Positions 4,976 through 24,060 of a DNA stretch of 64,000 nucleotides are shown one piece after another. Source of the stretch: Scolanthus callimorphus. Taxonomy: Eukaryota; Cnidaria; Anthozoa; Actiniaria; Edwardsiidae. Under the pieces are notes generated by a model. That model was not told the origin of the DNA and ran no database searches. It saw only the letters and a list, made by a program, of their open reading frames with translations. The position numbers and the translations under genes are program-made. How positions within the stretch are numbered: the stretch's first letter is position 1; the number at the start of each line of letters is the position of its first letter. Location: the NCBI GenBank assembly GCA_033964015.1, contig CM066916.1:13432501-13496500 (forward strand), read 5' to 3'.

Positions 4976-6990
4976 CATATCTATACTATTATAATCGGGT
5001 TGTCTGCGCAAACCTTTCTGATTGGCTAAATCGTTCGCATTCACTCCGCTTAGGCCTGAAGCTGTGTCGCCAAAAGAAAGTTCACAAACCTGCAGAGAAG
5101 GTGGAAATCTCGACAGTGAGCGTGTTTTGGTTGGCAAAGAATTCACCCTTGGCTAAGTTCTAATTCAAGCGATTTCTTAAGCGAGGGACAAAGCTGCCAT
5201 CGCCGCCATTTTGAAATCTCCCACAGAAACTAAAAAACTGGAACTCAGTTCGCAGAGCCGAAAGCACCATAGTCATTCAGACTTCAATGGTTCTGTGACA
5301 GATTCACTGTCAGGAATGTGCAGGGATAATTGTTATTCGAAAGCTTTAAGTTGAGAAAACATTTCATTCTGCTTGAACAAACGTACACTAGTTCCTTGCT
5401 TTTCTGTTCGAACGCTAAGGCGAAATGAGTGAAAAATTTACAAACGAAGGACACACACCCAACGAGAAGAAGGAAATCTCTCAAGTGAGCGTGCTTTTGT
5501 TGGAAAAATTTCACCTTTGGCTAAGTTCTAATTCAAGCGATTTTTTCTGCGAGGTACAAAGCCGCCATCGCGGCCATGTTGAAATCTCCCACATTAACTA
5601 AAAAAGAACTCATTTCCCTCAGCCGAAAGCACCATAGACATTCAAAACTAAATGGTTGTATTACAGATTACTTACTATTATGTGCAGGGACAATTTTAAT
5701 TCGAAAGATTTGAGCTGAGAAAAATTGTCATTCAGGGCCACTGCCTACAGAGCGCACGCTAAGCCATGAATCGAATTCTCTAAAAATAATGATAAACTAA
5801 ATATTTCTTAGAACAATTTTACTTTACCTGTTTCTTCTCTTCCCTTACTGAAATAAAATAAGCATACAAACAATTCCGAAGTCAAATGGTTTTTCTGTGC
5901 TAATAGGCTTGCGTTGTCTATTTTAGCGGGTTCTTCGGACTTAGACAGATTTGAGAGCCGTACTGACTCACACGACACACTGCGTCATTTTCTCCACCAA
6001 AATCAGGGAGACCAGTACAAAACAAACAAAAAAGGTTCTGGGGCTCACTTCATTTATTTCAGCATGCGGAAGGGGATCTTTCTTGAAGGGAGGTCAATAG
6101 TAATGTAAATCAGCAGTTTATGGAAGGGGGAAAGTCAGGTTGAGTCTTCTAGCGTAATAATAATAAACTTTATTATTCAACTTAGACAGATCAGACAGCG
6201 TCACGAAGTGACGGGCTGTTTTCTTGTAACATTTGTAATCGACAATGCTACATGGTTTCATGTTCGTTTTTCTTATATGTTAGTTATAGTTATTTGTGCT
6301 TGCGATTTTGGGTTTCTTTTTTGTAATATATAGACTTCAAAGTCACTGTAGAGAATCCTATACGCGAGCCTTGATCCAATTGAAGTAAGTAACTACAGAA
6401 TATGGACAAAATTGTTAAGATCAAAGCATTATTTCATTTGTTTACCACAGTAATTGGCCTGATAAACTAAACATTGACGCAGTCAACGGTATCATATAGG
6501 AACAGCTGCTAGCGGCGACAATTCATCACTCGAAGAACGTTTTCCTTTCAGTAAGTTTGCAGTTAAGAAAATATCCGAATCCGATCTTTCTGTAAATTAG
6601 AAATATGGATTCAAAACTGTCGTATCTAGGAAAACACCGACCTTCCTCTTGAGAGGCGGAGCCCCTTTGGAGTTGAAATGGCTCACCAACTCAATAAAGT
6701 CTCCCATCTCTTGCGTGGCTTGTTTGGCCTGTTCCGCTGTGACTGGGGATAAGGCTGGAAGCGGTGTTTTTCAAGAGTCCTTTGGTTAGGGCTCAAAAGT
6801 TAATAGAAACGTGCTCACCCGTCGAAATGTGTGCGTATCTGTGAGCTTTCATGGATATGCCACACAAGAAAGCCTTACATCGAGAAAGAATATAGCTGGT
6901 AGATGGCGCTATCTTAGGAATTTGCATTTAAAACACTGTTACCTAACGTGCGCCACTCAGCAATCAAAAGTTACCTGGCATCAGATCAAC
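4976..6990 (+). repeat. Arm 1 of a large inverted duplication
   Basis: This block is found again, reverse-complemented and in the correct mirrored order, as four pieces: 31572-32412 (matching 4976-5825), 25060-25190 (5826-5945), 23474-24060 (about 6280-6810) and 20520-20652 (6811-6990). Markers visible in both arms include CTTAGGCCTGAAGC, ACTTTACCTGTTTC, GGCGGAACAGGCC (in reverse) and GAGCTTTCATGGATA. The block contains two internal near-repeats (5100-5300, 5470-5700) with CGCCATTTTGAAATCTCCCA-like motifs. No gene is recognised in it. Confidence 0.75.
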
Positions 6991-8018: not shown

Positions 8019-8259
8019 TTAGCCAATTTTGAAATTCGCGTGTTGCAGATTGATACGCTGTGTCTAGTGTCTGAATAGAGTTCGTAGGATACCGGAGAAA
8101 TGTGTATGGCCCAGTAAGATCTTTTTATATGAAAACATTACTTGAGCGCGAGAGGTGTGACGCCATAGCATTCTACTGCTTAATGGGACGAATTAGGTTC
8201 TAATTGGGGCGTCGTCACTGTTACGTGGATTACAGAAGTAAGAATTTTTGTAACCAGAT

Positions 8260-9294
8260 ATGGTGTTTCGCCGCGAAATCCAAGGCGGAATTAAGGCGTA
8301 TATCCTTTACAGGATAAGAGATGCATGCCATAAGCCTATAGATGTTGCAAGAGATACCGGAGTCTCGTTACGAAGCGTTTATAGAATAAGAAAAGAGGGA
8401 GTTCGGGCTTTAAGAAAAAAGAATCGGAAGCCGAGCTCTGGGCGTCCAAGAAAGATAACTGCCAAATCAGAGAGGTATTAACATATGTTCTGGAAGCCTA
8501 TTCGAGGCATGTGGTCTTGATTTACGCGAAGTAAGTAACAGAACTGTACGCAGAAGACTACACGATCACGGTTACGAGTATCTGCAAAGTAGGAAAAAGG
8601 GGGTATAGAAGAACGCTTGCAGTTTGCCAAGGATGTGAAAAAAAACACACAAAACGACTTCTGGACTTCAGAGATAAACTTTTATTTGGACGGTGTCGGG
8701 TTCTATTACAAGAGAAATCCAGCTGGACAAGCTAGAGCACCACAGGGGCGGATGGAGAAAAAATCTGAGGGTTTAGCGCTGGGATGTACGGCTAAGGGAA
8801 AGAAGGAGGGGTCGGGAGGGAAAACGTGTAAGTTTTTTGTTAGCATCAGTTTCGGAAAAGGGGTAATAGCATGCGACCCTTACGAAAAACTTAACGGGGA
8901 TTTCTTCAGAAGTTATGTTATGAAACATTTTCGCGGACTGTTCAAAAAAGCACAGAAGGCCCCCTCCAAACTTTGGCTACAGGATGGCGATCCGAGTCAA
9001 AATTCGGCTGCTGCTAAAGGGGCATTGAGAAAAGTTAAAGCAGAACTGTTCCCAATACCGCCAAGAAGCCCCGATCTCAATCCTATAGAGAACGTTTTTC
9101 ATCTGGTTAGGAAAGAACTTAACAAACAGGCACTGACTCGCAAAATTAAGAGGGAGAGTTACAAGGAGTTTCAAAATCGCGTAAGGGAAACAATTCTAGC
9201 ATTTCCAGTAAACATCATCGATAATATTATTGGATCGATGGATAAGCGGATAGACTTGATTATAAAAAGCAAAGGCAACCGAATAAAATACTAA
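8260..9294 (+). pseudogene. IS630/Tc1-like DDE transposase, copy 1 (broken)
   Basis: Coding starts at ATG 8260 (MVFRREIQGGIKAY). An N-terminal helix-turn-helix stretch (DVARDTGVSLRSVYRI) is followed by a catalytic domain with FYLDGVGF (first Asp), LWLQDGDPSQNS (second Asp) and PRSPDLNPIEN (Glu), the DDE pattern of the IS630-Tc1-mariner group. Relative to copy 2 this copy lacks about 38 bp after position 8473 and so stops early at 8479. Both copies also share a frame change at a G5 run near 8600. The second open part runs about 8617-9294. The protein would cut and rejoin element DNA in the nucleus. As written it is inactive. Confidence 0.85.
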
Positions 9295-9780
9295 GCAAAT
9301 AACAATTCCTTTTGTTGCATGCCAAATCGTCAGATGTTTCCCGCCAAAATAATTCCGCTACTTCCGGTCTTTTCTCTGTCTACTTCCGGTTTGTAAACCG
9401 TTGACATACGAAACGATTTTTAACATCTTGTAATTATGTTTTTTTGGAGTTTGTTAACTTGGAGAACAATACACTGCTATGATGTCGACGATGCACTTGA
9501 CTAATTACGGTTATTCTAAGCTTAACAACGATTTCCAACGGTTTACGCCTGATTTTGCAGGAAATTAATTTATGAGCATCAAATTTCATTTTAGTAATTT
9601 TGACACCGTAAACCGTTGAAAATGCTGGAAAACGTCTCAACAACTCGAATATTTTCCACTAGTAGTGTAAGCTCACAAATGTAAACCGTCTATGTGAAAA
9701 ATCTAAGTCAGGTTGCTATGTTCTCACGAGAAATAAGGGAAACTTACTCTTTGAATATTTTCGGAGTCTTTTGGTGTTAA
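9295..9780. promoter_or_regulatory. Convergent intergenic region with four GTAAACCGTT iteron-like motifs
   Basis: Between the stop codons of the two converging genes lie GTAAACCGTT at 9393-9402 and 9608-9617, its reverse complement at 9537-9546, and GTAAACCGTC at 9681-9690. The middle two form a 12-bp perfect inverted pair (9536-9547 with 9607-9618), extendable to 17 bp with one mismatch, around a 59-base AT-rich loop. Two CTACTTCCGGT copies lie at 9358-9368 and 9380-9390. Rep proteins of the HUH class bind iterons beside a stem-loop origin, so this is a candidate origin. That role is inference. Confidence 0.5.
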
Positions 9781-11169
9781 TTAGGAACAGACTAGACTTG
9801 CGAAGCACCTACAACATGGGTTTACACGGCGCTGCCTCGCCTCCGAAATCTGCGCTCTAAAGTTGAACGTTCTCCACCTGACAGCCATCATTTCACTCTC
9901 TCGATCATCCACAACTCCGTTCTTAATAAATGTAAGTGGACGCTTGGTTGTTGCAAATATCGGAGTGTCGTCACTGAGCTGGATATCGTGACTAAAGTGT
10001 GTTTTCGGTGCTGGCAAATGAACTACATCTCCTTCCAATAAAAGCAGTAAATCGTGCCAGGGAATCATCTGGGCACTCCAGCGGAAATCATTTAGGAAAA
10101 TGCACTCCTTATCCTGAACCCCTACCCAGGCAAAGCTGCCCGAGGCAGGGTTAGTAAAAGTGTTAAAAATCAGAGTAAGCGGTTTAGGATAAAAGTCTTT
10201 GCACAGTTCGCTGGTCCAGTAATCATGATGTTCCTGTATTTACCGCGGCCTTTCAAAAGCAAATTCTTTATAGCTTCAGCAAAGCCATTAAATTCAATAT
10301 CATTACTTTCAAGTACTTCCTTGGCGCAGTTAAACCAGTCCCTTTCGCTATCACACGTGCAGTCCAATTGTTTTGCGTCTTGTAGTATTTCCATGCGCGT
10401 TTTTCTCGCTCGCTCCAGTTTTTCGCCCGCCCCTTAATCTCCCAGGTTGTATCAATAATTTCTTCAACCGTCTTCCGTGACCTGCTAAGTATAAACTCCA
10501 TGAGGTCTTCTTTTCCCTCAGACTTTTGTTTGTAAGCAAGTGCCTCCAATCCCGTCAAAGCTTTTATATTTTTACTCAACAGCACTTCTGATACTTGTAA
10601 GACAGAAAGTCGTTTTCTCTTGGTTTTCTTACTAGACCCACTTTCTCCTTCCTTTTTATCAGAATTTTTAGCACGACCCCTTTTATTTCTGTTTTCTCTC
10701 ACCTTTTTACTGGCCCTAGTAGTTCTCGGCTCATGAAAGTTCGTAAGATCAGGGTGTCCTTTGCTTTGTTCGTAGTCTAGATCAGTTTTAGTGACATAGC
10801 GCCAGGCACTATAGTAGTTACAGTAATCCCGACTTGAATAATTTACCACTATTCCATACTTCTCCTTCAGATAATCTTTTGAACATTTCCAACGCCTGAC
10901 TCCTTTCAGCTTTATGGAAACATGAAAATGAATCCCTCCTTGCTTGTGTTCTTCTTCAGAGCAACACCATTGAATGACTTTGCCCCCGCCATGTTCGAAC
11001 GACTCAACCAGCATGTTTGCAAAATCGCGTCGGTTTTTACTTTATCTTTATCTACTTGGCTATATGTAACCAAATAAACAGATCTTATCTCGTCTGGAAG
11101 CAATCCAGGATTCTCACTACTAGCAGAAGACTTTTCCGAATCAGAATCGTACTCGTGCAACAACTCCAT
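9781..11169 (-). pseudogene. HUH endonuclease/SF3 helicase Rep-like protein, copy 1 (three frameshifts)
   Basis: Same gene as 18448-19839, read from ATG 11169 (MELLHEYDSD). The frame is broken at about 11035, 10435 and 10185. Each time one base is missing from a short homopolymer that is one longer in copy 2 (T run, T run after CCCC, T run). All Rep motifs are still visible in pieces: YLVTYSQ, IHFHVSIK, YVTK, GPANCAKT, and ATTKRP near the end. The extra base at 11170-11175 also removes the alternative upstream start seen in copy 2, supporting the MELLHEY start. This is either a decayed copy or one affected by homopolymer errors. Confidence 0.8.
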
Positions 11170-11453
11170 GTTTACAAAACTGGATTGCAGCGATAAACAA
11201 GGCGCGTCCAGTCAAGGGCAGTGTCCATAGGCACAGGCTTCCCAAACATGTGAATTTCGAAACAAAGCATGTCCCACGTTTTTAAGTTATGAAAGTCATC
11301 TTTTTCGAAATAAATAAGGCCTTCAATGCATTAAAAAACCTGCTTGAAAATAGGAAAACAAGTCTACTGTATTCAATATACAACAAAACAACAAGACACA
11401 ACCGGTTCTCCTTAAATCATTTCGCTAAGAGAAAGGGGTGCACCTTTTGCCCC

Positions 11454-11723
11454 CAGACAATCTTGGACAAATTGTTGGCAAAATTTTGAGTTTTGTGCAG
11501 AAATCAGTGGGTATGCTGAAATACATACGGATAATGCCAATTCTCGCTCCCCCCCTCCCCCAAATCAATGTTGAGGAACTTCTAGATCATCTGTCTACGG
11601 ACCCAAGCAACATTGACTATAGGGGGGGTGGGGGAGGGGTACAAATCACGCATGGACAGGAGTGAAACGTCATTTCGGTCATTTTTGGGGAAATTGCCAA
11701 GACATTTTGTCCAAGATTGTCTG
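11454..11723. repeat. 270-bp foldback between the two composite units
   Basis: CAGACAATCTTGGACAAA (11454-11471) and its exact reverse complement (11706-11723) enclose a C-rich run (about 11550-11562) and a matching G-rich run (about 11622-11640), so most of the segment can fold back. The outer CAGAC and GTCTG coincide with the end of unit 1 and the start of unit 2. No coding content. Confidence 0.75.
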
Positions 11724-11908
11724 AATAGAGTTCGTAGGATACCGGAGAAATGTGTATGGCCCAGTAAGATCTTTTATATGAAAACATTACTTGAGCGCGA
11801 GAGGTGTGACGCCATAGCATTCTACTGCTTAATGGGACGAATTAGGTTCTAATTGGGGCGTCGTCACTGTTACGTGGATTACAGAAGTAAGAATTTTTGT
11901 AACCAGAT

Positions 11909-12981
11909 ATGGTGTTTCGCCGCGAAATCCAAGGCGGAATTAAGGCGTATATCCTTTACAGGATAAGAGATGCATGCCATAAGCCTATAGATGTTGCAAG
12001 AGATACCGGAGTCTCGTTACGAAGCGTTTATAGAATAAGAAAAGAGGGAGTTCGGGCTTTAAGAAAAAAGAATCGGAAGCCGAGCTCTGGGCGTCCAAGA
12101 AAGATAACTGCCAAATCAGAGAGGGTACTTATACGACAGTTTAATCTTTTGCGTCACGAGAATCCCAACATATGTTCTGGAAGCCTATTCGAGGCATGTG
12201 GTCTTGATTTACGCGAAGTAAGTAACAGAACTGTACGCAGAAGACTACACGATCACGGTTACGAGTATCTGCAAAGTAGGAAAAAGGGGGTATAGAAGAA
12301 CGCTTGCAGTTTGCCAAGGATGTGAAAAAAAACACACAAAACGACTTCTGGACTTCAGAGATAAACTTTTATTTGGACGGTGTCGGGTTCTATTACAAGA
12401 GAAATCCAGCTGGACAAGCTAGAGCACCACAGGGGCGGATATGGAGAAAAAATCTGAGGGTTTAGCGCTGGGATGTACGGCTAAGGGAAAGAAGGAGGGG
12501 TCGGGAGGGAAAACGTGTAAGTTTTTGTTAGCATCAGTTTCGGAAAAGGGGTAATAGCATGCGACCCTTACGAAAAACTTAACGGGGATTTCTTCAGAAG
12601 TTATGTTATGAAACATTTTCGCGGACTGTTCAAAAAAGCACAGAAGGCCCCCTCCAAACTTTGGCTACAGGATGGCGATCCGAGTCAAAATTCGGCTGCT
12701 GCTAAAGGGGCATTGAGAAAAGTTAAAGCAGAACTGTTCCCAATACCGCCAAGAAGCCCCGATCTCAATCCTATAGAGAACGTTTTCATCTGGTTAGGAA
12801 AGAACTTAACAAACAGGCACTGACTCGCAAAATTAAGAGGGAGAGTTACAAGGAGTTTCAAAATCGCGTAAGGGAAACAATTCTAGCATTTCCAGTAAAC
12901 ATCATCGATAATATTATTGGATCGATGGATAAGCGGATAGACTTGATTATAAAAAGCAAAGGCAACCGAATAAAATACTAA
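11909..12981 (+). pseudogene. IS630/Tc1-like DDE transposase, copy 2
   Basis: Starts with the same MVFRREIQGG as copy 1 and keeps the 38 bp that copy 1 lost, giving an open frame to 12295 (128 codons). The frame then shifts at the same GGGGG run as copy 1. The catalytic part continues with GVGFYYKRNP, LWLQDGDPSQNS (near 12660) and PRSPDLNPIEN (near 12755), ending at TAA 12979-12981. Further one-base differences from copy 1 lie in T runs near 12522 and 12785. If all homopolymer changes are errors this would be a roughly 350-residue transposase. If not, it is a dead copy. Confidence 0.85.
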
Positions 12982-13151
12982 GCAAATAACAATTCCTTTT
13001 GTTGCATGCCAAATCGTCAGATGTTTCCCGCCAAAATAATTCCGCTACTTCCGGTCTTTTCTCTGTCTACTTCCGGTTTGTAAACCGTTGACATACGAAA
13101 CGATTTTTAACATCTTGTAATTATGTTTTTTTGGAGTTTGTTAACTTGGAG
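12982..13151. promoter_or_regulatory. Left part of the unit 2 intergenic region
   Basis: Carries the first GTAAACCGTT motif (13080-13089) and ends TTAACTTGGAG, exactly where DIRS begins. The rest of the intergenic region, with the other three motifs, resumes at 18131. Confidence 0.6.
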
Positions 13152-13330
13152 AAATTATATTTCCCCGGAGGGTAGGTACTTACCTGACGGGGAGATGTAG
13201 TTCTTCGAACTCCTTCGGAGACTGATACGAGCAATACATATGCAGATCGCGGCCGCGCGCGGTCTGGGTACCACATTACAAAAAAAAAAAAAAACCTACA
13301 GGCGTTCCTGACTTCCTCTGAGAGAGTGGC
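13152..13330. repeat. DIRS 3' inverted terminal repeat
   Basis: The inner part, from ACATATGCAGATCGCGG through the A tract to GGCGTTCCTGACTTCCTC, is the reverse complement of about 18014-18098. The outer 85 bases diverge partly from the 5' repeat but are exactly complementary to 13402-13486. A NotI-like GCGGCCGC and a 14-A run are present. Confidence 0.85.
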
Positions 13331-13401
13331 GCTGCCATTTATAAACGAATGTCAGTAACCTCGGGAGGGGAGGAAAATGCAGCATTCCGGATGGGGAACT
13401 G

Positions 13402-13530
13402 TATTGCTCGTATCAGTCTCCGAAGGAGTTCGAAGAACTACATCTCCCCGTCAGGTAAGTACCTACCCTCCGGGGAAATATAATTTCTTCTTCACTCCTT
13501 CTCCGACTGATACTCACAATACATATGCAG
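13402..13530. repeat. DIRS internal complementary region (circle-junction template)
   Basis: 13402-13486 is the reverse complement of the outer end of the 3' repeat. It is directly followed by 13487-13530, the reverse complement of the outer end of the 5' repeat (18087-18130). The two element ends are thus joined head to tail in complement, as needed to template the circular intermediate in the accepted DIRS replication model. The junction lies between ...TATAATTT and CTTCTTCAC... Confidence 0.9.
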
Positions 13531-13862
13531 TCTTCGAAGAGTTACTGACTTGAGTACACAATAATAAACTGTAAACATGTGTTTACTAGTGAATGTAAAC
13601 TGCAATATAAAATGTATACATCCTATAGACCCTACTCTAAGTAGTTGAGTTGAGTGGGAAATGAATCCAAGTACTAGAAACATGTAAACATGACATGCAA
13701 AGTAAATATCAAATTGAACTACAAATATTCCATTGTTTGGACTAAATGACCTAAATCCATGGAAATGACCCATTCATAGTAGGTCATATCAAACTATTAT
13801 CATAACATTAAACTTAAAGTTCTAAACAAATATCAAGATAGTTTCTCTGATATCAATAAGGT
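13531..13862. other. DIRS non-coding segment between recombinase and ICR
   Basis: AT-rich, with no recognised motif. The short frames here are not conserved protein. Confidence 0.5.
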
Positions 13863-14900
13863 TCAACCTGAGGCTGTATTCAGAACTGTTGTAGCAAAGT
13901 CTCCTCTGCTGGTGGGTTTGTGGTAAAACCTCTGAAATGTCACTGTCGACGACCAGTCAGCTGCCTCAAGAATGTTCTCCAGCGGCAACCCCGCATTGGC
14001 CGCTGATGTAGTAGAGGCACTACGGGTGGAGTGAGCTGTGAAATGGGTTTCAATCCTGCCAACCTTAGAGTCTTTCTAAGCCACCTGGAGATTGTCTGAC
14101 TTGTAATTGCCTTGTATGGTCTGACATATGAAATTAAAAGCTGAGAACCGGTTCTAACAGGTGCCGTTCTTTCTTGGAAAGCCTCCAAAGATTTGATTAC
14201 ACATATCCTTTGGTCTGTGTATGCTGGAAGATATATTGTTCGTGGGGGGTGACCCTGTCTTGAATTCTTAACATGTGAAGTTAACTTGAATTCCCAAGAG
14301 TTTGTCTTCTTAATGACAGAGTTCAGGTCCAATTTACAGAGCTCATGTGCACGAGCAGCCGATGTCAGAGCCAACAGGGTTGTGAGTTTCAATGTAAGCA
14401 GTTGTTTACTTAAGCTACTTAGTGGCTCAAGTGTAGAAAGATACACTAGCAGTGGTTTGACCTCCCATGTCGAACATAGGCGAGGAGTCGGGGGCTTCGT
14501 TCGAAAGACCCTTTCATAAAACGAGATACAATTGGGTGCTCACCCAGACTGGATTGTCCAATAGGGATGTGCGCTTGGGAGATAGCTGACTTATACACTG
14601 CAATTGTTCTATATTCCAGTCCCCCCTGTCCAGTCAAGCTGGCCAGGAAGGCAAGAACCTGATCCACTGGTGCCGAAAATGGACAAAGACCACGGGTAAG
14701 ACACCAATTTGACCAAGCCTTCCATGGCCCCTGGTACCTTTTCTGGGTTCCTTCAGACCATGATGCCAAAAGTATGTTAATTACCTCTGGTGTGAGACCT
14801 GCTGCCTCATAGGACCTCCTGATATCGGCCATACAGTTAGGCGGAGCGACCGCCACAGCGGGTGTAATGCTTGCAGGTCGAAGGGTAGAGTCAGTAGTGA
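13863..14900 (-). pseudogene. DIRS tyrosine recombinase (two frameshifts)
   Basis: The N-terminal core-binding domain (LTPEVINILLASWSEGTQKR, near 14800-14740) lies at the end of a frame open to 14446. At about 14515 the frame changes to one with LLALTSAARAHELCKLDL, holding the box I arginine. A second change near 14060 leads to HFTAHSTRSAS (H-x-x-R) and QRFYHKP with the nucleophilic tyrosine, ending at TGA 13863. All catalytic residues of the family are therefore present but spread over three frames. The recombinase integrates the circular DNA. Either two small indels have killed it or they are sequence errors. Confidence 0.85.
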
Positions 14901-16970
14901 TTTCCCCTGCGGAAGACGCCAGGGAGGGGCTGTTAACATTAACTGAATCTCTGGATACCAAGGTTGGCCGGACCAGTCCGGTGCAACCAGTAGGCATGTT
15001 GCTTGGTCCATCCAAACTTTCTGCAGGACTCTGGTTAACAGTGTTACTGGGGGGTGAATGAAACTCTTCCACTTGCTCCAGTCCTGTCGAAACGCGTCCA
15101 CCGCTACTGCCCCCGGGTCCGGGTGCCAAGACACGTAAGCTGGCACTTTGTGGTTGAGCCGGGATGCAAACAGATCTATTTCCGGAGTGTAGTATCTCTC
15201 TGTTATCTGCCTGAAAATCTGAGTGTTGAGGGTCCACTCCGTTCGAGAATTGAATTCCCTCGATGCTCGGTCTGCTTCGACATTCAGCACACCCTGTAGA
15301 TGGCGGGCTGTCACCCATGTTCCCTTGTTCAGTAGAAGAGACCAGATCTCCAGGGCGATTAGTGACAGAGTAGGTGACCGTGTCCCTCCCCTTCTGTTGA
15401 CATAGGACACTGCTGTAGTGTTGTCCATTTCGAGAAGTATATGGCGAGGGGTAGACTTCACTTGTCCCAGAAAGGACTGAAGAGCTAGTAAGGCTGCCTT
15501 GAGTTCTAGGCAGTTGATGTGCTGCTGGGCTTCCGATGTGCCCCATCGACCCCCTGTCACTGTCCCATTGCAAGTTGCTCCCCACCCCAGTAACGATGCA
15601 TCGGTCTGTATGACCAGGTCGAATGGGGGGGGGGGGGGGGGTGTTATCTCCTGTCTGTTGAATGTGTAGATGTTTGGTGCAAGCCACCACTCCAGGTCCT
15701 CCAGTGTCTGTCTCGATAATGTTATTCGTACTTTCTTTTTCCACCCTACTGTGTGGAATGTAAGTGCATGAAGGCGCTGTAGTGATCGATAATGTAGGGG
15801 GGCGGTCCAAACACCCGTCTGTGCTGCATGACTCATGCGGCCCAATAGGCTCGACAGCTCTCCTAATGTTGTTTCCTGTGACTTGACCATCTCTCGACAA
15901 GAGTTCACAATCGTCAGTATCTTTTCCTCGGGTAAGGATATTGTCATCCGGGACGTATCCAACATAGCCCCCAAAAACACAAGCTGATTTGTTGGGGCTG
16001 GCGAACACTTCTCTATCTTCACAACAAACCCTAGGTTCGATAACATGTCCAGTACTTGCTGGAATATCCTCACTAGTGTCTGTTCGTGCTCGTGTAGAAT
16101 CAGAATGTCGTCCAGGTAAATTACTGTCCGCAGTCCCTGAGAGCGGAGTCGTGCTACTACAGGGTGGAGCACTTTCGTGAAGACCCGGGGCGCAACCGAG
16201 ATTCCAAATGGGAGACACTGGAACTCGAGAACAGTTTCTTCGAACACAAAGCGAAGGTATTTCCTGGACTCCCTGTGAATGGGTATCGAGTAGTACGCAT
16301 CCTTCAGATCGAGCTTCATCATAAAGTCTCCGGGGTGTAGTAGGGAACGTACTGTATGGAGGCCCTCCATTTTGAATTTCTCTTTTGCAAGAAAACGATT
16401 CAGAGCCTTCAAGTTGATTACTGGGCGAAACTCTCCTGTCCCTTGGCCCTTCTCCACTAGGAATAGGGTTGATATGAACTGTTCTGGGTGGGGGTCCACT
16501 ACTTGGACTGCCCCTTTCTGCACAAGAGAGTGGATTGCTTCCACTAAACATTCCCGTGGTTGACCTTTGCGGGGTCTGGTCTCTCTGGCCCTCCACTGTC
16601 GTGGGGGTCTGGTAAAAGGGGTTTTGTATCCCTGAATCGTGTCCAAAATCCATTTGTCCGTAGTTAAGTCTCTCCATTTTCTGGTGAAATGTCTTAGCCG
16701 ACCTGCGTGATGGTCGGCATAGTCAGCTGTTGTTGGTGGATTTGGTGTTGGTAGACTGTCGGGATCCCGAGTTGGATTTACTGAACTTGTAACTTGGTCC
16801 TGCTTGTCGTTGTGAGTTGGCCGGGTATCTCCGTTTCGGGTCATACCGTCCCCTCTGTGGGGTGTCATTCCGAAAGGACTGGGGCTTTCGGAAGGGGCGC
16901 GTCTCCTTGGGTTTGTTGATGAGCTTGGTGTTGGATGCCCCATGGTCATGCTCAGACTTGATTTTTTCAT
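14781..16970 (-). CDS. DIRS reverse transcriptase/RNase H polyprotein
   Basis: Open frame of 729 codons. Reverse transcriptase motifs in order: FRPVINLKALN (about residue 180), KLDLKDAYYSIPI (about 217), LPFGISVAPRVF and VIYLDDILIL (catalytic YLDD, about 285). RNase H follows: VIQTDASLLGWG, CLELKAALLALQ, LEMDNTTAVSYV and LNVEADRASREF, giving the four acidic residues. The C-terminal part (PEIDLFASRLN, DAFRQDW, PDWSGQPWYP) is typical of DIRS pol, where an adenine-methyltransferase-like domain is often noted. A run of G around 15626-15642 encodes six prolines. It overlaps gag by about 250 bases in a different frame, and the recombinase frame overlaps its 3' end. This is the only intact core ORF of the element. 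Confidence 0.93.
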   Translation of the reverse strand: MKKSSLSMTMGHPTPSSSTNPRRRAPSESPSPFGMTPHRGDGMTRNGDTRPTHNDKQDQVTSSVNPTRDPDSLPTPNPPTTADYADHHAGRLRHFTRKWRDLTTDKWILDTIQGYKTPFTRPPRQWRARETRPRKGQPRECLVEAIHSLVQKGAVQVVDPHPEQFISTLFLVEKGQGTGEFRPVINLKALNRFLAKEKFKMEGLHTVRSLLHPGDFMMKLDLKDAYYSIPIHRESRKYLRFVFEETVLEFQCLPFGISVAPRVFTKVLHPVVARLRSQGLRTVIYLDDILILHEHEQTLVRIFQQVLDMLSNLGFVVKIEKCSPAPTNQLVFLGAMLDTSRMTISLPEEKILTIVNSCREMVKSQETTLGELSSLLGRMSHAAQTGVWTAPLHYRSLQRLHALTFHTVGWKKKVRITLSRQTLEDLEWWLAPNIYTFNRQEITPPPPPPFDLVIQTDASLLGWGATCNGTVTGGRWGTSEAQQHINCLELKAALLALQSFLGQVKSTPRHILLEMDNTTAVSYVNRRGGTRSPTLSLIALEIWSLLLNKGTWVTARHLQGVLNVEADRASREFNSRTEWTLNTQIFRQITERYYTPEIDLFASRLNHKVPAYVSWHPDPGAVAVDAFRQDWSKWKSFIHPPVTLLTRVLQKVWMDQATCLLVAPDWSGQPWYPEIQLMLTAPPWRLPQGKSLLTLPFDLQALHPLWRSLRLTVWPISGGPMRQQVSHQR

Positions 16971-17760
16971 GAAACTTGCTAGGAAACAAGTGTTTGTCAG
17001 TTGGGATTCCCTCTTTGAGGGTCCTCTTACCGATTTCGGTTAAATACTCTGAGAATCGACGTTGGCGCCAGTCATTCAATCTGGCATTTGCATTCCCTAG
17101 CATGACAAGTGCATCCTCCAACATTTCCTTGACGAGTTCTGGGTCAGGTCCCACTTCCTCATCTTCACCCTCACCCTCACCAAGGGATGTATCGAGGTGG
17201 GTAAGCGCTGCCAACAATGGCCTTGCTACAGTAATATATGCAGCTTGTTTCTCTGCTAGTCCATCATCAAACGCCAAGGCACTTTTGGTCTTGGCATATC
17301 CATGCCGCTTGCGCAGCTCCTCCTTCATGCCCGCTTCCATGACTGGTGCAGTCAGAAAGTTCTCTGTGTCTTTTACTGGTGGGTATGAGTCCATCACCTC
17401 CTTCCATTTCTCCTTGGACAGGGCTTTAGCGAAGGCCTTGGTTGTTAGCTCCAGTAGTTCAGCTGAAATCTGTGCTGATTTTTCCTCCTCGAAAAATCTA
17501 CTCCCTCTCGATGGAGATGGCTTATCCGTCTCTATGGAGGGTTTGGGGGTGGCAGTTGTTGCCCCATTAGCATCTCCAGCTTGTTGCTGACCCGCCGGGG
17601 TGTGTTAGTGGCGGTTAAACCGCTCGTGAACAGGTTGGCCATCACTGTAGGTAAGGATTTCGCAATAACCTTTTCTAAGGTCTTTTCTAAGGCCTGCTGG
17701 TCATGCGGTGCAGCTCCCGCCGATAGGATCGGGGCTGACTCGCTTACTTTGTCCTGGAAG
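16723..17760 (-). pseudogene. DIRS gag-like protein (one probable frameshift)
   Basis: A basic, hydrophilic protein lies upstream of RT, open from about 17600 to 16723. It includes ELLELTTKAFAKALSKEKW, AEKQAAYITVARPLLAALTH, an acidic stretch EGEGEDEEVG, and a tail rich in Arg, Asn and Ser. The first ATG in frame is 17397 (MMDSYPPVKD), but coding similarity clearly extends further 5'. Near 17600 the frame shifts to one running back to about 17760 (QALEKTLEKVIAKSLPTVM). There a TTTGTCTTCCAG looks like a splice acceptor, so a spliced leader exon is possible. It packages element RNA in related retroelements. Confidence 0.7.
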
Positions 17761-18013
17761 ACAAATAAGGAAGGCGGTCAATGACTCATGCCTTATGTTT
17801 GTGCGTGTATCGTCGAGACGATAGGTGCGGAAGGATCCGCTTTAATCTCTCTCAAAACGAGCCATCCTGTGCCTGAAAAGCAAGAAAAGGGTTAACAAAG
17901 ACTTTAACTTACTTCCTCTGTGGTCTGGTCCTCCATGTGGAAACTCTAGAGGAATAATTAATCTGAAAAACTGTGATACGAAAGTTGTGGTCGACCGAAT
18001 GCAAGCCACGAAA
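17761..18013. other. DIRS 5' leader
   Basis: Between gag and the 5' terminal repeat. A possible acceptor at its gag-proximal end was noted; nothing else is recognised. Confidence 0.5.
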
Positions 18014-18130
18014 GAAAGAGGAAGTCAGGAACGCCTGTAGGTTTTTTTTTTTGTAATGTGGTACCCAGACCGCGCGCGGCCGCGATCTGCATATGTATTG
18101 TGAGTATCAGTCGGAGAAGGAGTGAAGAAG
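18014..18130. repeat. DIRS 5' inverted terminal repeat
   Basis: Reverse complement of the core of 13152-13330, including the shared GCGCGCGGCCGCGATCTG segment and the T run. Its last 44 bases are also complementary to 13487-13530. Confidence 0.88.
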
Positions 18131-18447
18131 AACAATACACTGCTATGATGTCTACGATGCACTTGACTAATTACGGTTATTCTAAGCTTAACAACGATTT
18201 CCAACGGTTTACGCCTGATTTTGCAGGAAATTAATTTATGAGCATCAAATTTCATTTTAGTAATTTTGACACCGTAAACCGTTGAAAATGCTGGAAAACG
18301 TCTCAACAACTCGAATATTTTTCCACTAGTAGTGTAAGCTCACAAATGTAAACCGTCTATGTGAAAAATCTAAGTCAGGTTGCTATGTTCTCACGAGAAA
18401 TAAGGGAAACTTACTCTTTGAATATTTTCGGAGTCTATTGGTGTTAA
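18131..18447. promoter_or_regulatory. Right part of the unit 2 intergenic region with three iteron-like motifs
   Basis: Continues the sequence cut by DIRS. The reverse-complement motif is at 18203-18212, GTAAACCGTT at 18274-18283 and GTAAACCGTC at 18348-18357. The stem pair is 18202-18213 with 18273-18284. The Rep gene stops just beyond, so this is its 3' side. Confidence 0.5.
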
Positions 18448-19839
18448 TTAGGAACAGACTAGACTTGCGAAGCACCTACAACATGGGTTTACACGGCGCT
18501 GCCTCGCCTCCGAAATCTGCGCTCTAAAGTTGAACGTTCTCCACCTGACAGCCATCATTTCACTCTCTCGATCATCCACAACTCCGTTCTTAATAAATGT
18601 AAGTGGACGCTTGGTTGTTGCAAATATCGGAGTGTCGTCACTGAGCTGGATATCGTGACTAAAGTGTGTTTTCGGTGCTGGCAAATGAACTACATCTCCT
18701 TCCAATAAAAGCAGTAAATCGTGCCAGGGAATCATCTGGGCACTCCAGCGGAAATCATTTAGGAAAATGCACTCCTTATCCTGAACCCCTACCCAGGCAA
18801 AGCTGCCCGAGGCAGGGTTAGTAAAAGTGTTAAAAATCAGAGTAAGCGGTTTTAGGATAAAAGTCTTTGCACAGTTCGCTGGTCCAGTAATCATGATGTT
18901 CCTGTATTTACCGCGGCCTTTCAAAAGCAAATTCTTTATAGCTTCAGCAAAGCCATTCAATTCAATATCATTACTTTCAAGTACTTCCTTGGCGCAGTTA
19001 AACCAGTCCCTTTCGCTATCACACGTGCAATCCAATTGTTTTGCGTCTTGTAGTATTTCCATGCGCGTTTTTCTCGCTCGCTCCAGTTTTTCGCCCGCCC
19101 CTTTAATCTCCCAGGTTGTATCAATAATTTCTTCAACCGTCTTCCGTGACCTGCTAAGTATAAACTCCATGAGGTCTTCTTTTCCCTCAGACTTTTGTTT
19201 GTAAGCAAGTGCCTCCAATCCCGTCAAAGCTTTTATATTTTTACTCAACAGCACTTCTGATACTTGTAAGACAGAAAGTCGTTTTCTCTTGGTTTTCTTA
19301 CTAGACCCACTTTCTCCTTCCTTTTTATCAGAATTTTTAGCACGACCCCTTTTATTTCTGTTTTCTCTCACCTTTTTACTGGCCCTAGTAGTTCTCGGCT
19401 CATGAAAGTTCGTAAGATCAGGGTGTCCTTTGCTTTGTTCGTAGTCTAGATCAGTTTTAGTGACATAGCGCCAGGCACTATAGTAGTTACAGTAATCCCG
19501 ACTTGAATAATTTACCACTATTCCATACTTCTCCTTCAGATAATCTTTTGAACATTTCCAACGCCTGACTCCTTTCAGCTTTATGGAAACATGAAAATGA
19601 ATCCCTCCTTGCTTGTGTTCTTCTTCAGAGCAACACCATTGAATGACTTTGCCCCCGCCATGTTCGAACGACTCAACCAGCATGTTTGCAAAATCGCGTC
19701 GGTTTTTTACTTTATCTTTATCTACTTGGCTATATGTAACCAAATAAACAGATCTTATCTCGTCTGGAAGCAATCCAGGATTCTCACTACTAGCAGAAGA
19801 CTTTTCCGAATCAGAATCGTACTCGTGCAACAACTCCAT
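18448..19839 (-). CDS. HUH endonuclease/SF3 helicase Rep-like protein, copy 2 (intact)
   Basis: 463 codons from ATG 19839. An in-frame ATG at 19914 exists but its lead is out of frame in copy 1. N-terminal rolling-circle endonuclease: motif 1 YLVTYSQ (residues 32-38), motif 2 IHFHVSIK with the HUH pair (81-83), motif 3 YVTK with the presumed nicking tyrosine (125-128). A very basic linker (155-187, KKTKRKR) is NLS-like. C-terminal superfamily 3 helicase: Walker A GPANCAKT (319-326), Walker B ECIFLNDFRW (356-365), motif C ATTKRP (407-412), and an arginine-rich VDDRESEMMAVRW. This matches the architecture of CRESS-DNA-virus and plasmid Reps, which nick an origin and unwind DNA. The usual Walker A Gly before Lys is Ala here. 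It converges on a transposase and is copied with it. It could be an endogenised viral Rep or a transposon Rep. Confidence 0.85.
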   Translation of the reverse strand: MELLHEYDSDSEKSSASSENPGLLPDEIRSVYLVTYSQVDKDKVKNRRDFANMLVESFEHGGGKVIQWCCSEEEHKQGGIHFHVSIKLKGVRRWKCSKDYLKEKYGIVVNYSSRDYCNYYSAWRYVTKTDLDYEQSKGHPDLTNFHEPRTTRASKKVRENRNKRGRAKNSDKKEGESGSSKKTKRKRLSVLQVSEVLLSKNIKALTGLEALAYKQKSEGKEDLMEFILSRSRKTVEEIIDTTWEIKGAGEKLERARKTRMEILQDAKQLDCTCDSERDWFNCAKEVLESNDIELNGFAEAIKNLLLKGRGKYRNIMITGPANCAKTFILKPLTLIFNTFTNPASGSFAWVGVQDKECIFLNDFRWSAQMIPWHDLLLLLEGDVVHLPAPKTHFSHDIQLSDDTPIFATTKRPLTFIKNGVVDDRESEMMAVRWRTFNFRAQISEARQRRVNPCCRCFASLVCS

Positions 19840-20126
19840 GTTTACAAACTGGATTGCAGCGATAAACAAGGCGCGTCCAGTCAAGGGCAGTGTCCATAGG
19901 CACAGGCTTCCCAAACATGTGAATTTCGAAACAAAGCATGTCCCCGTTTTTAAGTTATGAAAGTCATCTTTTTCGAAATAAATAAGGCCTTCAATGCATT
20001 AAAAAACCTGCTTGAAAATAGGAAAACAAGTCTACTGTATTCAATATACAACAAAACAACAAGACACAACCGGTTCTCCTTAAATCATTTCGCTAAGAGA
20101 AAGGGGTGCACCTTTTGCCCCCAGAC

Positions 20127-20519
20127 TGTAGGTCATGCTTATCCAAAGCTCACCGAGACCCAGCGTATAAATCATGTCTTTTATTTTCACTTGCCAGTCT
20201 GTTTTATTATTTAGTTCTAGGCAGTCGAGAAACACGTGATCGATATGTTAAGCCACTTCTGGGCTCTTTGAGTTTGCCTTAGGAAATTAAACGCCCTGTA
20301 TTTGGCATCGACTGATAGCGTGTATCTTCCGAGCTCGGCCCTACTTGCATTATTCAGTTGCTTTCTTGCTTACTCTAAGTGCTAGTTTACAGAATTTTGT
20401 ACCATTTTTGGGGGAAAAATTGGCCTTTTTTCGTCTTATACCCTAAAAGATACCTGGAACCCGAATTTTAACCCCTAAAAGATACGACGAGCACCCCGCC
20501 CGACGAAATATGGGAGTCG
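20127..20519. other. Spacer after unit 2 with a fragment of the 55978 repeat family
   Basis: Mostly unassigned. About 20430-20519 matches one end of the hAT-like element at 55978-56356 (CCCTAAAAGATAC, ACGACGAGCACCCC, ATGGGAGTCGCCC). No gene seen. Confidence 0.5.
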
Positions 20520-20652
20520 CCCTATGATGCCAGGTAACTTTTGAATGCTGAGTGGCACACGTTTAAGATCCTTTCTCTGTGTAAGGCTTTCTCGTGGTAT
20601 ATCCATGAAAGCTCACAGATACGCACACATTTCGACGGCTGAGCACGTTTTT
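20520..20652 (-). repeat. Arm 2, block matching 6811-6990
   Basis: Reverse-complement match through CAGGTAACTTTTGAATGCTG and ATCCATGAAAGCTCACAGAT. It is interrupted at 20653 by the element carrying the palindrome array. Confidence 0.7.
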
Positions 20653-20905
20653 AGCGGAGCTCCTGCGCGGGCCGAAGGCCCGCGCAAGCGGAGCACCATA
20701 CCTAAGGGAAAAACGTATAGTATACTATCGAGTTGATTTTTGAACGTCACGGGCATTATGGATCATTTTGATGACGTCATTGATGACGTAAGGGCACGTG
20801 ACTTTGGTGTAGAGTTCCTCTTATGGTCTTTGAAACTTTGTCCAAGTTTGGCTCCTTCGGGAGATATGATTTTTTCTTTATTTTTCTGGTATTAAACCTA
20901 TAGCG

Positions 20906-20944
20906 TACGCCGTCCGTCCGTCGTCCGTCCGTCCGTCCGTCCGT
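20906..20944. repeat. CCGT microsatellite
   Basis: Tandem CCGT units with one imperfect unit, immediately before the palindrome array. Confidence 0.9.
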
Positions 20945-21739
20945 GTACACATGGGAACTATGTGGTATGCAAAGAAAAAATTATATCTCCTCAAGGGAAC
21001 ATGCTAAGACAACCAAACTTGGAATATTTTGTCTATGCCACAAGGGGGGTGCTGTAACACGGACACGTGATGTGACGTCATCGATGACGTCATCTATGCT
21101 TGAAAAATCAATATCTCGTGAAGACTCTAACCAACCAAACTTGGGTAATGTAATCGATCCAGGTGCGAGTTGTTCAAAGGTGGATTAAATTTAAACCAGG
21201 TTTAGTTCTGAACCACTTTCGAGCAACTGGACCCAGGTCACCAGATGAGCGAAATGAAGTGGTCACGTGATGTGACGTCATCGATGACGTCATCTATGTT
21301 TGAAAAATCAATATCTCGTGAAGGGAAGACTCTAAGACAACAAAACTTAGGTAGTGTAGTCTAGGCCACCAGATAAAGCAAAATGAGGTGGTCACGTGAT
21401 ATGACGTCATCGATGACGTCATTTATGCTTGAAAAATCAATATCTCGTGAAGGGAAGACTCTAAAGCAACCAAACTTGGGCAATGTAATCCAGGTCACCA
21501 GATGAGCGAAATGAAGTGGTCACGTGATATGACGTCATCGATGACGTCATCTATGCTTGAAAAATCAACATCTCGTGAAGGGAAGACTCTAAAACAAACC
21601 AAACTTGAGTAATGTAATCCAGGTCAACAGATGAGCGAAATTAAGTGGTCACGTGATATGACGTCATCGATGACGTCATCTACTCTTGAAAAATCAATAT
21701 CTCATGAAAGGAAGACTCTAAAACAACCAAACTGGGTAA

Positions 21740-22777
21740 GGGACGTGTCATTATTTACCGGGGGGGAGGGCTCCCACTTTTTTCAACAAGGCTAAAAAAA
21801 AATTAGGACCCTCCCCTTGAACATAACAAAAAAATGTGACCCTCCCCCAGTCGTAGGTAAAAAAAAATTGGGACCCTCCCCCATGTCATTATATGCCTTC
21901 TGAAAAACCTGTCAGATAGACTATTGTCCGAGTGAAGCAATGTCTTTCATTCTTATTAATAGCAGAAATACTTTTTCCTTACTTCTGTCAAAGCTAGCGC
22001 TGTTATTATTTATCGCCTCGATTATTTACGTGAGGATTTTGGGTAATACACGGCAAAAATGCAGTGATCCTCCCTGTATAAGTACAATGATTACCGTGAT
22101 TCCACCTCTCTCGTCCCCTATTTCTCCTAGTACTGAAGACATTTTACAGAAAAGGGGGGTCGTACATCTTTCGTTGCGTTCGCCCGAATTTTGATAAACG
22201 AATGTTATCAATCCTAAGAGATAGGGTAGATGGACATGTTTTGTGTACGGTATAGTAAACAAAGCCTGTCAGGAGCCCAGGAAGTACGGTACCTCAACTA
22301 TAGGTTAGATGAAAGCTTCTATTGATGGGCTCCTGAGCCAACAAGGTATATTATTCATGTGCACAAGTGCGCGCCGCAAATGATGTCAAAAACTCACGCT
22401 TTCCTATAGGGTCTTCTTTCAAACATATAGTTACTTGCCCGCCAGGCCTATCATTGCAGGGCATTTTTTGGGAGAGTTTGCTTTTCCTCGTCAAGAAAAC
22501 TTGTTCTTGTAAACGGCGTGAGGGTGGTGTCTTCATTAATTGCTCAACGTGTATATTAGATGTCATTCTTTATGAAATTTTTATAGAGAAGTTGCTGAAA
22601 TAACCACTATCGGCATCTGTTTTACCCTCTTTATCGTCCAAATGTTGCTGAAAAAATTATGACCCTCCCCCAAACAGGAGTGAAAAAAATTTGGACCCTC
22701 CCTTTAGACACGCGAAAAAAATTAGGACCCCCCACAAAAATAGGAGCCCTCCCCCCCGCTAAATAATGACACGTCCC
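21740..22777. mobile_element. PIF/Harbinger-type element, family A copy 2
   Basis: Same termini as copy 1 (GGGACGTGTCATTATTTA), flanked by TAA (21737-21739, 22778-22780). Neighbouring array units contain the uninterrupted site CTTGGGTAATGTAATCC, so the insertion point and the 3-bp duplication are confirmed. At 1038 bp it has no transposase. It contains an 75-bp segment with CAGGAGCCCA / TGGGCTCCTG ends near 22268-22336. Confidence 0.9.
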
Positions 22778-23473
22778 TAATGTAATCCAGTTCACCAGAT
22801 GAGCGAAATGAAGTGGTCACGTGATGTGACGTCATCGATGACGTCATCTATGCTTGAAAAATCAATATCTCGTGAAGGGAAGACTCTAAGACAACCAAAC
22901 TTGGGTAGTGTAGTCTAGGCCACCAGATGAGCAAAATGAGGTGGTCACGTGATATGACGTCATCGATGACGTCATATATGCTTAAAAAACCAATATCTCG
23001 TGAAGGGAAGACTCTAAAGCAACCAAACTTGGGTAATGTAATCCAGGTCACCAGATGAGCGAAATGATGTGGTCACGTGATATGACGTCATCGATGACGT
23101 CATCTACGCTTAAAAATAATATCTCATGAAAGGAAGACTCTAAACCAACCAAACTTGGGTAATGTAATCCAGGTCACCAGATGAGCGAAATGAAGTGGTC
23201 ACGTGATGTGACGTCATCGATGACGTCATCTATGCTTGAAAAATTAATATCTCGTGAAGGGAATACTCTAAAACAACCAAACTTTGGTAGTGTAGTCTAG
23301 GTCATTAGATGAGCGAAATGAAGTGGTCACGTAATATGACGTCATCGATGATGTCATTTATGCTTGAAAAATTATATCTCGTGAAGGGAAGACTCTAAAG
23401 TAACCATGTAAACCATGTACACATGGGAATCCCTTTCATTCACACAGAAAATTTTATAACCAGGAGCTCCGCT

Positions 23474-24060
23474 TTTAGCCAGTGGCTTAATCTATATTAT
23501 TGACTTTGAGCCTCTTTAAGCCTTAACCAAGGACTCTTGAAATACATTGCTTCCAGCCTATCCCAGTCACAGGCGGAACAGGCCAAACAAGCAACGCAAG
23601 AGATGGGAGACTATTGAGTTGAGCCAACTCAACTCCAAGGGGCTCCGCTTCTCAAGAGGAACGTCGGTGTTTTCCTAGATACGACAGTTTTGAATCCATA
23701 TTTCTAATTTACAGAAAGATCGGATTTCGGATATTTTCTAACTGCAAACTTACTGAAAGGAAAACGTTTCTTCGAGTGATGAATTGTCGCCGCTAGCAGC
23801 TGTTCCCATATGATACCGTTGACTGCGTCAATGTTTAGTTTACCAGGCCAATTACTGTGGTAAACAAATGAAGTAATGCTCTGATCTTAACAATTTGTCC
23901 ATATCTGTAGTTATACTTGAGCGCGAATTTTGAGGTTAGGTTCAATTGTTTCTATGTTCATCAATTGAATCAAGGCTCGCGTATAGGATTTTTTATAGTG
24001 ACTTTGAAGTCTATATATACAAAAAAAAGAAACCCAAAATCGCAAGCACAAATATCTATT
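23474..24060 (-). repeat. Arm 2, block matching about 6280-6810
   Basis: Reverse-complement match through CCAAGGACTCTTGAAA, GGCGGAACAGGCC, TTTTCCTAGATACGACAG and AGCAGCTGTTCC. Its inner half (about 23920-24060) is followed by a diverged partial copy at 24090-24230. Confidence 0.75.

What the first reader, a model, noticed from the sequence alone, without database searches (positions are those of the whole stretch)
8068..20126. A DDE transposase and an HUH/SF3 Rep gene that travel together
Seen: two collinear 3.4-kb units, each with an IS630/Tc1-like transposase converging on a Rep-like gene, with the intergenic region and upstream flanks also shared. Known: DDE transposases cut and paste double-stranded DNA, while HUH Reps act by rolling-circle nicking; the two chemistries are rarely in one element. 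Inference: this may be a hybrid transposon, or a transposon that captured a CRESS-type Rep (or the reverse). I know of no named family with this layout.
Basis: partly seen in the sequence, partly recalled or inferred. Interest (0 to 1): 0.88.

Follow-up and report, generated by a model that had tools for sequence, protein, structure and literature searches.

The report
Jumping gene with two copying machines
An animal-like genome carries many copies of a mobile DNA element that pairs a cut-and-paste enzyme with a virus-like rolling-circle replication protein between two repeated ends, which suggests that one element may both jump and copy itself as a circle.

Summary
The window holds a head-to-tail dimer of a ~3.97-kb transposon; the second unit is split by a ~5-kb DIRS-like insertion. 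The complete element, read at 16 insertions elsewhere in the same 597-Mb genome, is TA-[~265-bp repeat]-core-[~265-bp repeat]-TA. [quoted passage not shown] The core carries a Tc1/mariner-type transposase (363 aa) converging on an HUH + SF3-helicase Rep (463 aa); copies with both frames open exist.

The pairing is not local: in capped hit lists 66 of 86 Rep loci and 66 of 100 transposase loci are convergent partners, none same-strand, across families roughly 36-60% identical. Seven TDRs aligned share an inner hairpin motif; two array loci showed no TDR at the junction read.

Scars, solo TDRs and abutted TDRs suggest Tc1-like cutting at TDR ends. Head-to-tail arrays, and left ends resembling their own right ends (p about 0.004), fit Rep-driven copying between TDRs, but unequal crossing-over or gene conversion would do; Rep's role is inferred. 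Exceptions: a Rep-less transposase array and a Rep locus without detected transposase.

Closest known: KolobokP (same architecture, other enzymes) and a truffle Rep+transposase element. Filed as a new variant.

The parts
8065..8069 (.). Left TA (8065-8066) plus 3 bp GTG (8067-8069) where the outer left TDR of unit A is missing
   Evidence: Complete copies read TA-[CAATCTTGG..CCAAGATTG]-TCTGAATAG; here TA-GTG-TCTGAATAG. That this is an excision scar is inferred.
8070..11457 (+). Core of unit A (TCTG...CAGA): broken transposase converging on broken Rep
8260..9291 (+). Transposase of unit A, Tc1/mariner type, broken
   Evidence: aa 1-363, 88% id, 4 stops inside; DDE_3 on ORF 8617-9294
9531..9623 (.). 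Intergenic inverted repeat between the convergent 3' ends
   Evidence: 17-bp arms; score 14 vs maximum 10 in 30 shuffles
10406..11041 (-). Part of Rep of unit A, frame broken
   Evidence: C6:13442906-13443541, 96% id, aa 45-256
11458..11719 (+). Terminal direct repeat shared by the two units, bounded by TIRs CAATCTTGGACAAA.../...TTTGTCCAAGATTG
11547..11639 (.). Inner hairpin of the TDR; TCAATGTTG at 11565-11573, CAACATTG at 11608-11615; candidate Rep site (inferred)
   Evidence: TCAATGTTG invariant in the 7 TDRs aligned; whole TDR folds with z -4.7
11720..20125 (+). Core of unit B, interrupted by the insertion at about 13154-18130
11909..12853 (+). Transposase of unit B (aa 1-321 part), broken
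   Evidence: C6:13444409-13445353, 7 stops inside
13154..18130 (-). DIRS-like retroelement inserted between transposase and Rep of unit B; not part of the element
   Evidence: absent from unit A; RT PF00078, Phage_integrase E=0.0021, inverted end repeats
18448..19839 (-). Intact Rep of unit B, 463 aa: HUH endonuclease + SF3 helicase
   Evidence: HxH codons at 19591-19599, YxxK Tyr at 19465-19467
20126..20130 (.). 3 bp CTG (20126-20128) and TA (20129-20130) where the outer right TDR of unit B is missing
   Evidence: Complete copies read CAGA-[CAATC..GATTG]-TA; excision inferred

Best explanation
A composite-ended DNA transposon of the Tc1/mariner superfamily with a second, rolling-circle replication module. 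Shown: transposase and Rep sit convergently in one core between two TDRs; each TDR is itself a TIR-bounded unit flanked by TA when outermost; the TDRs found carry an inner hairpin; TDRs also occur solo, abutted, and shared between tandem units. Proposed mechanism: (1) the transposase cuts at TIRs and inserts mostly at TA, moving TDR-core-TDR or one TDR alone; (2) Rep nicks at the TDR hairpin and copies from one TDR to the other, releasing or regenerating one-TDR circles and head-to-tail concatemers; (3) these give the transposase new TDR-core-TDR substrates, so both ends of a new copy descend from one TDR. Step 1 is well supported by anatomy; steps 2-3 are inferred. In circular form the plan would resemble an ambisense ssDNA virus or plasmid: hairpin between divergent gene starts, in several families a second hairpin between convergent gene ends, with a transposase where a capsid gene would sit.
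Against: No circle or replication intermediate was observed. KolobokP makes such arrays and solo repeats without a Rep (PMC9587614). A Rep-less array with intact transposase exists (L061), so arrays need no Rep in cis. One Rep locus has no detectable transposase (L034). Array junctions in L031 and L033 show no TDR hairpin or motif, even with one mismatch; L031's may be an excised TDR, L033's is unexplained. L034's TDR was found by the motif itself, so it does not test it; one TDR of L030 and one of L028 carry a changed motif. The mean left-right difference within an element (3.1) is not smaller than left-left between elements (2.5); gene conversion would also link the ends. A T/C column in the C-tract and six homopolymer indel columns are shared by different elements. 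The both-flipped copy (L018) can be one inversion of the core. In-genome co-divergence is not significant (7 families, r=0.37, p=0.076). No Rep relative was confirmed in IMG/VR, GTDB genomes or phage records.
Confidence: 0.6

Rival explanations
1. A KolobokP-like composite transposon in which arrays, solo TDRs and similar ends arise by unequal crossing-over and gene conversion between TDRs. Rep does not replicate the element; at most it nicks TDRs and provokes recombination, as was proposed for the KolobokP homing endonuclease.
For: Same architecture and by-products in KolobokP without Rep (PMC9587614); Rep-less array L061; array units locally identical.
Against: HUH, tyrosine and helicase motifs are all conserved, more than nicking alone would seem to need (inference); the inner hairpin is the main invariant inner block of the aligned TDRs.
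Confidence: 0.28
2. Rep is a passenger or regulator (for example of transposase expression) and the transposase does all the moving.
For: TA duplications, scars and solo TDRs need only the transposase; L061 lacks Rep.
Against: Rep is open with slow second codon positions in seven families and pairs with the transposase in 66 of 86 listed loci.
Confidence: 0.08
3. Endogenous copies of an ssDNA virus (CRESS- or parvovirus-like) that uses a transposase for integration.
For: Rep fold matches viral Reps; inferred ambisense plan; many matching contigs in other assemblies are 3.4-4.4 kb.
Against: The two copies with both frames open hold only two ORFs above 130 aa, transposase and Rep; the IMG/VR scan confirmed no relative; unit-length contigs are also what collapsed repeats give.
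Confidence: 0.03
4. Chance neighbours duplicated locally.
For: Tandem duplication in the window.
Against: Genome-wide convergent pairing across families with about half their residues changed.
Confidence: 0.01

Closest known systems
KolobokP composite-like DNA transposons (Kojima and Bao 2022, PMC9587614)
   Same: Internal region between two long terminal direct repeats, each with short TIRs; solo repeats; head-to-tail multimers sharing a repeat; excision of single repeats; a DDE transposase plus a second nuclease inside.
   Different: [quoted passage not shown] Here Tc1/mariner transposase, HUH-SF3 Rep, repeats of about 160-290 bp with an inner hairpin, mostly TA duplication.
Geminivirus-like transposon of Tuber melanosporum (Liu et al. 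2011, PMC3198968)
   Same: Rep-like gene and transposase genes in one repeated element with TIRs.
   Different: 37-bp TIRs, no obvious target duplication, one interrupted and one truncated transposase ORF; no terminal direct repeats in the passage read; relationship not tested.
IS630-Tc1-mariner DNA transposons
   Same: DD34E transposase, Mos1/Sleeping Beauty-like fold, TIRs, TA target duplication.
   Different: Ordinary members have no Rep and no terminal direct repeats (general knowledge, recalled).
CRESS-DNA viruses and parvoviruses
   Same: HUH nuclease plus SF3 helicase in one protein; hairpins; inferred ambisense plan.
   Different: No third large ORF that could be a capsid in the two open copies; chromosomal element with a transposase.
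Helitrons
   Same: HUH nuclease in a eukaryotic mobile element.
   Different: Helitrons carry a long RepHel protein (PMC6431247, passages) and no DDE transposase (recalled).

Membership tests
IS630-Tc1-mariner superfamily | DD34E catalytic triad | tested here: met
   D162 and E296 invariant, D261 at least 90% conserved among 23 sequences, 34 residues between the last two; assignment as catalytic residues inferred from position
IS630-Tc1-mariner superfamily | TA target duplication | tested here: met
   14 of 16 insertions TA/TA, 2 TG/TG; 5 of 5 solo TDRs TA/TA
IS630-Tc1-mariner superfamily | transposase fold and domains | tested here: met
   Mos1 and Sleeping Beauty top matches for relative P0121; DDE_3 and HTH_Tnp_Tc3_2 above cut-off for the L009 copy
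KolobokP | terminal direct repeats with own TIRs, solo repeats, multimers | tested here: met
KolobokP | Kolobok-type transposase | tested here: not met
   Tc1/mariner type by profile and fold
KolobokP | His-Me finger nuclease | tested here: not met
   second gene is an HUH-SF3 Rep; no other ORF above 130 aa in L009 and L011
HUH-SF3 replication proteins | HxH, YxxK and Walker A motifs with both folds | tested here: met
   H82, H84, Y126, K129, G320, K326, T327 invariant or at least 90% conserved among 24 sequences; motif names recalled
CRESS-DNA viruses | capsid gene | tested here: not met
   only two ORFs above 130 aa in L009 and L011, transposase and Rep
CRESS-DNA viruses | circular genome | not testable with these tools
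   only integrated copies were readable
Parvoviridae | hairpin ends that flip independently at the two ends (recalled) | tested here: inconclusive
   17 complete elements: 16 with both ends in the usual orientation, 1 with both flipped, none mixed
Tuber Rep transposon | common descent of Rep and transposase | not tested
   no sequence of it was fetched

The most novel reading that the evidence does not exclude
A dual-mode mobile element: integrated, it is a cut-and-paste Tc1/mariner transposon; excised, it is a self-replicating ambisense circle driven by its own HUH-SF3 Rep from a hairpin origin that lies inside the transposon end, so that the same ~265-bp module is both transposase end and replication origin. 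Such elements would link ssDNA replicons and DNA transposons, with the transposase in place of a capsid.
Probability: 0.4. Interest if true: 0.9.

Novelty: new variant of a known kind. Interest (0 to 1): 0.78.

Why it matters
Cut-and-paste and rolling-circle chemistry are usually held by separate elements. A lineage that keeps both, across families differing at about half their residues, makes the question of how transposons and ssDNA replicons exchange parts directly testable. With KolobokP it also shows that TIR-bounded direct-repeat ends go with two different transposases, each time beside a second nuclease, which hints (no more) that such ends need one.

Tried and rejected
Chance association: rejected. 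A separate MITE between the window units: rejected, the 262-bp piece is the element's own terminal repeat. Parvovirus-like independent flipping of ends: not seen, but the one both-flipped copy equals a core inversion, so I do not use it as evidence. Relatives in viral contigs (57 pattern matches), prokaryote genomes (20 pattern matches) and phage records: none confirmed. A sequence search of solved structures gave only weak AAA-type matches. Rep's place among Reps: only weak profile hits (PF23343 below cut-off in the window protein; parvovirus, papillomavirus and geminivirus profiles in some of 24 relatives). A genome-wide count of the non-autonomous relative did not complete. The intergenic palindrome scan found none in 3 of 8 families, L030, L033, L035. 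No inverted repeat reached the scan's threshold in the L028 non-autonomous core. Dropped before counts: L058/L059, same flanks as L021; the one shared contig length below 3.4 kb (1621) was left out of the distance test. The second unit of the L011 dimer was kept as a TDR pair. Literature: ten searches of an open-access library listed no description of a Tc1/mariner element with a Rep; subscription papers and Repbase reports were not searchable, so this does not show absence from print. Read: PMC3198968 abstract, passages and one part of section 3; PMC9587614 abstract, passages, sections 8 and 15; PMC6431247 and PMC6668415 passages only.
Full report
What is in the window. Two collinear units are present. 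Unit A runs from the TCTG at 8070 to the CAGA at 11457; unit B from 11720 to 20125. They share one 262-bp repeat at 11458-11719. Unit B is interrupted at about 13154-18130 by a DIRS-like retroelement. Both transposases and the Rep of unit A are broken; the Rep of unit B is open. A and B differ by 4 mismatches over 2.0 kb on the Rep side and 1 over 1.4 kb on the transposase side, indels apart; against the dispersed copy L009 each has 9 and 4-5.

True ends. All 20 loci fetched match unit A; 15 of them have a match that begins exactly at window 8068 (3 more at 8069-8070) and 18 have one that runs past 11458. Reading the flanks showed why: a ~265-bp repeat stands at both ends, in the same orientation, beginning CAATCTTGG and ending CCAAGATTG. 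The whole is TA-[TDR]-TCTG...CAGA-[TDR]-TA, about 3,975 bp in most copies. Of 16 insertions with both outer flanks read (15 monomers, 1 dimer), 14 have TA on both sides and 2 have TG. Of 14 copies scanned, two (L009, L011) have both frames open: a 363-aa transposase and a 463-aa Rep.

The pairing. Merging the capped hit lists gave 86 Rep and 100 transposase loci; 66 of each are convergent neighbours, 65 of the 66 gaps being 0.38-1.12 kb, and none lies on the same strand within 6 kb. Of four unpaired loci opened, three had the partner (L062, L063, L064) and one did not: L061 is a 2.83-kb tandem array with an open transposase, the hairpin motif and no Rep. Of the seven divergent Rep loci fetched, six have the transposase and one, L034, has none detected. 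In other assemblies, 13 contig lengths coincide exactly between the top-120 of 562 Rep relatives and the top-120 of 1,130 transposase relatives: 1 below 3.4 kb (null 0.94), 8 at 3.4-4.4 kb (null 1.12, maximum 6 in 2,000 trials), 4 above (null 0.03). Equal length is only a proxy for the same contig. The two proteins' distances correlate over the 12 pairs at 3.4 kb or more (r=0.54, p=0.0005) and over all 19 (r=0.42, p=0.0002), but not significantly over the 7 in-genome families alone (r=0.37, p=0.076). Third codon positions differ more than second in every pair compared, roughly 1.3 to 2.7 times (some transposase frames were partial).

The terminal repeat. In L029, L030 and L035 the two ends carry direct repeats of about 256, 285 and 160 bp, 97.6-100% identical within an element and bounded by their own TIRs. 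Four TDRs folded as single strands are more stable than all 200 shuffles (z -4.7 to -7.2). In an alignment of seven TDRs the invariant blocks are the extreme ends and an inner hairpin with TCAATGTTG on one arm and CAAC.TTG on the other, within C-rich and G-rich flanks. Limits: the L034 TDR was found by that motif and so does not test it; one TDR of L030 and one of L028 carry a changed copy; the junctions read in arrays L031 and L033 show neither motif nor inverted repeat. A non-autonomous relative (L028 6862-8083) keeps the outer 15-bp TIR, the TCTG/CAGA inner edges and the hairpin. This is what one expects of a site that a protein of the element needs, and Rep is the natural candidate; that is inference. 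A second hairpin lies between the convergent gene ends in five of eight families scanned.

Signs of cutting. In the window the outer repeats are missing and 3 bp stand between TA and core. Of 12 TDR loci that I picked from the 44 matches, mostly those without a near Rep, five are solo with TA on both sides, four are two TDRs abutted (spacers CA, TA, TCA, TG; in L041 the second TDR is truncated, in L043 two bases of an arm are lost too), and three border a core; a fifth abutment is in L015. These spacers are what joined Tc1-type ends with short overhangs could leave (inference). One array junction on C29 is 258 bp shorter than its neighbours, about one TDR.

Copying. Over all 86 Rep loci, the 16 neighbouring pairs within 12 kb are all head-to-tail, 14 of them 3.2-4.0 kb apart. 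In 17 elements the left TDR is closer to its own right TDR than to reassigned right TDRs (p=0.0045 for substitutions, 0.0031 with gaps), as if both ends were copied from one. Two substitutions (one in the C-tract) each sit in both ends of a single element, L026 and L024; a T/C column in the C-tract and six homopolymer-length columns are shared between different elements. The mean within-element difference (3.1) lies between left-left (2.5) and right-right (4.3) between elements, so the signal is modest, and gene conversion would give it too. One element has both TDRs flipped relative to the core, which one core inversion explains as well.

Reading. The element is a Tc1/mariner transposon with KolobokP-like paired ends and a Rep. 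The transposase part of its life is well supported. That Rep drives rolling-circle copying between TDR hairpins is the simplest role for a complete HUH-SF3 protein beside such ends, and would explain arrays and linked ends, but KolobokP has similar arrays without a Rep, the L061 array has none in cis, and L033 shows no TDR where one is expected.

Novelty. The architecture is known from KolobokP and the gene pair has a fungal precedent; the combination, its Tc1/mariner base and the two-signal terminal repeat were not listed in the ten library searches. I rate it a new variant of a known kind.

Noticed in passing
13154-18130: DIRS-like retroelement with RT, a weak tyrosine-recombinase match and inverted end repeats, inserted in unit B.
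   Followed up: partly
6344-6863 and 20594-24000: Inverted repeat arms of 40-140 bp, 79-98% complementary, flank the region about 14-18 kb apart.
   Followed up: no
20974-23406: Repeat of about 128 bp in two tandem blocks.
   Followed up: no
L061 1-4000 (C1:9363301-9367300): Tandem 2.83-kb array with open related transposase and TDR hairpin motif but no Rep.
   Followed up: partly
L028 6862-8083: Non-autonomous relative with 242-243-bp TDRs, TA flanks and a different core.
   Followed up: partly
L029 2946-3043: Intergenic hairpin with the repeated unit CGATAAACCA in its arm, reminiscent of iterons; similar motifs in L031, L032, L034.
   Followed up: partly
L033 4064-5120: Array junction of a divergent family without a recognisable TDR, motif or inverted repeat.
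   Followed up: partly
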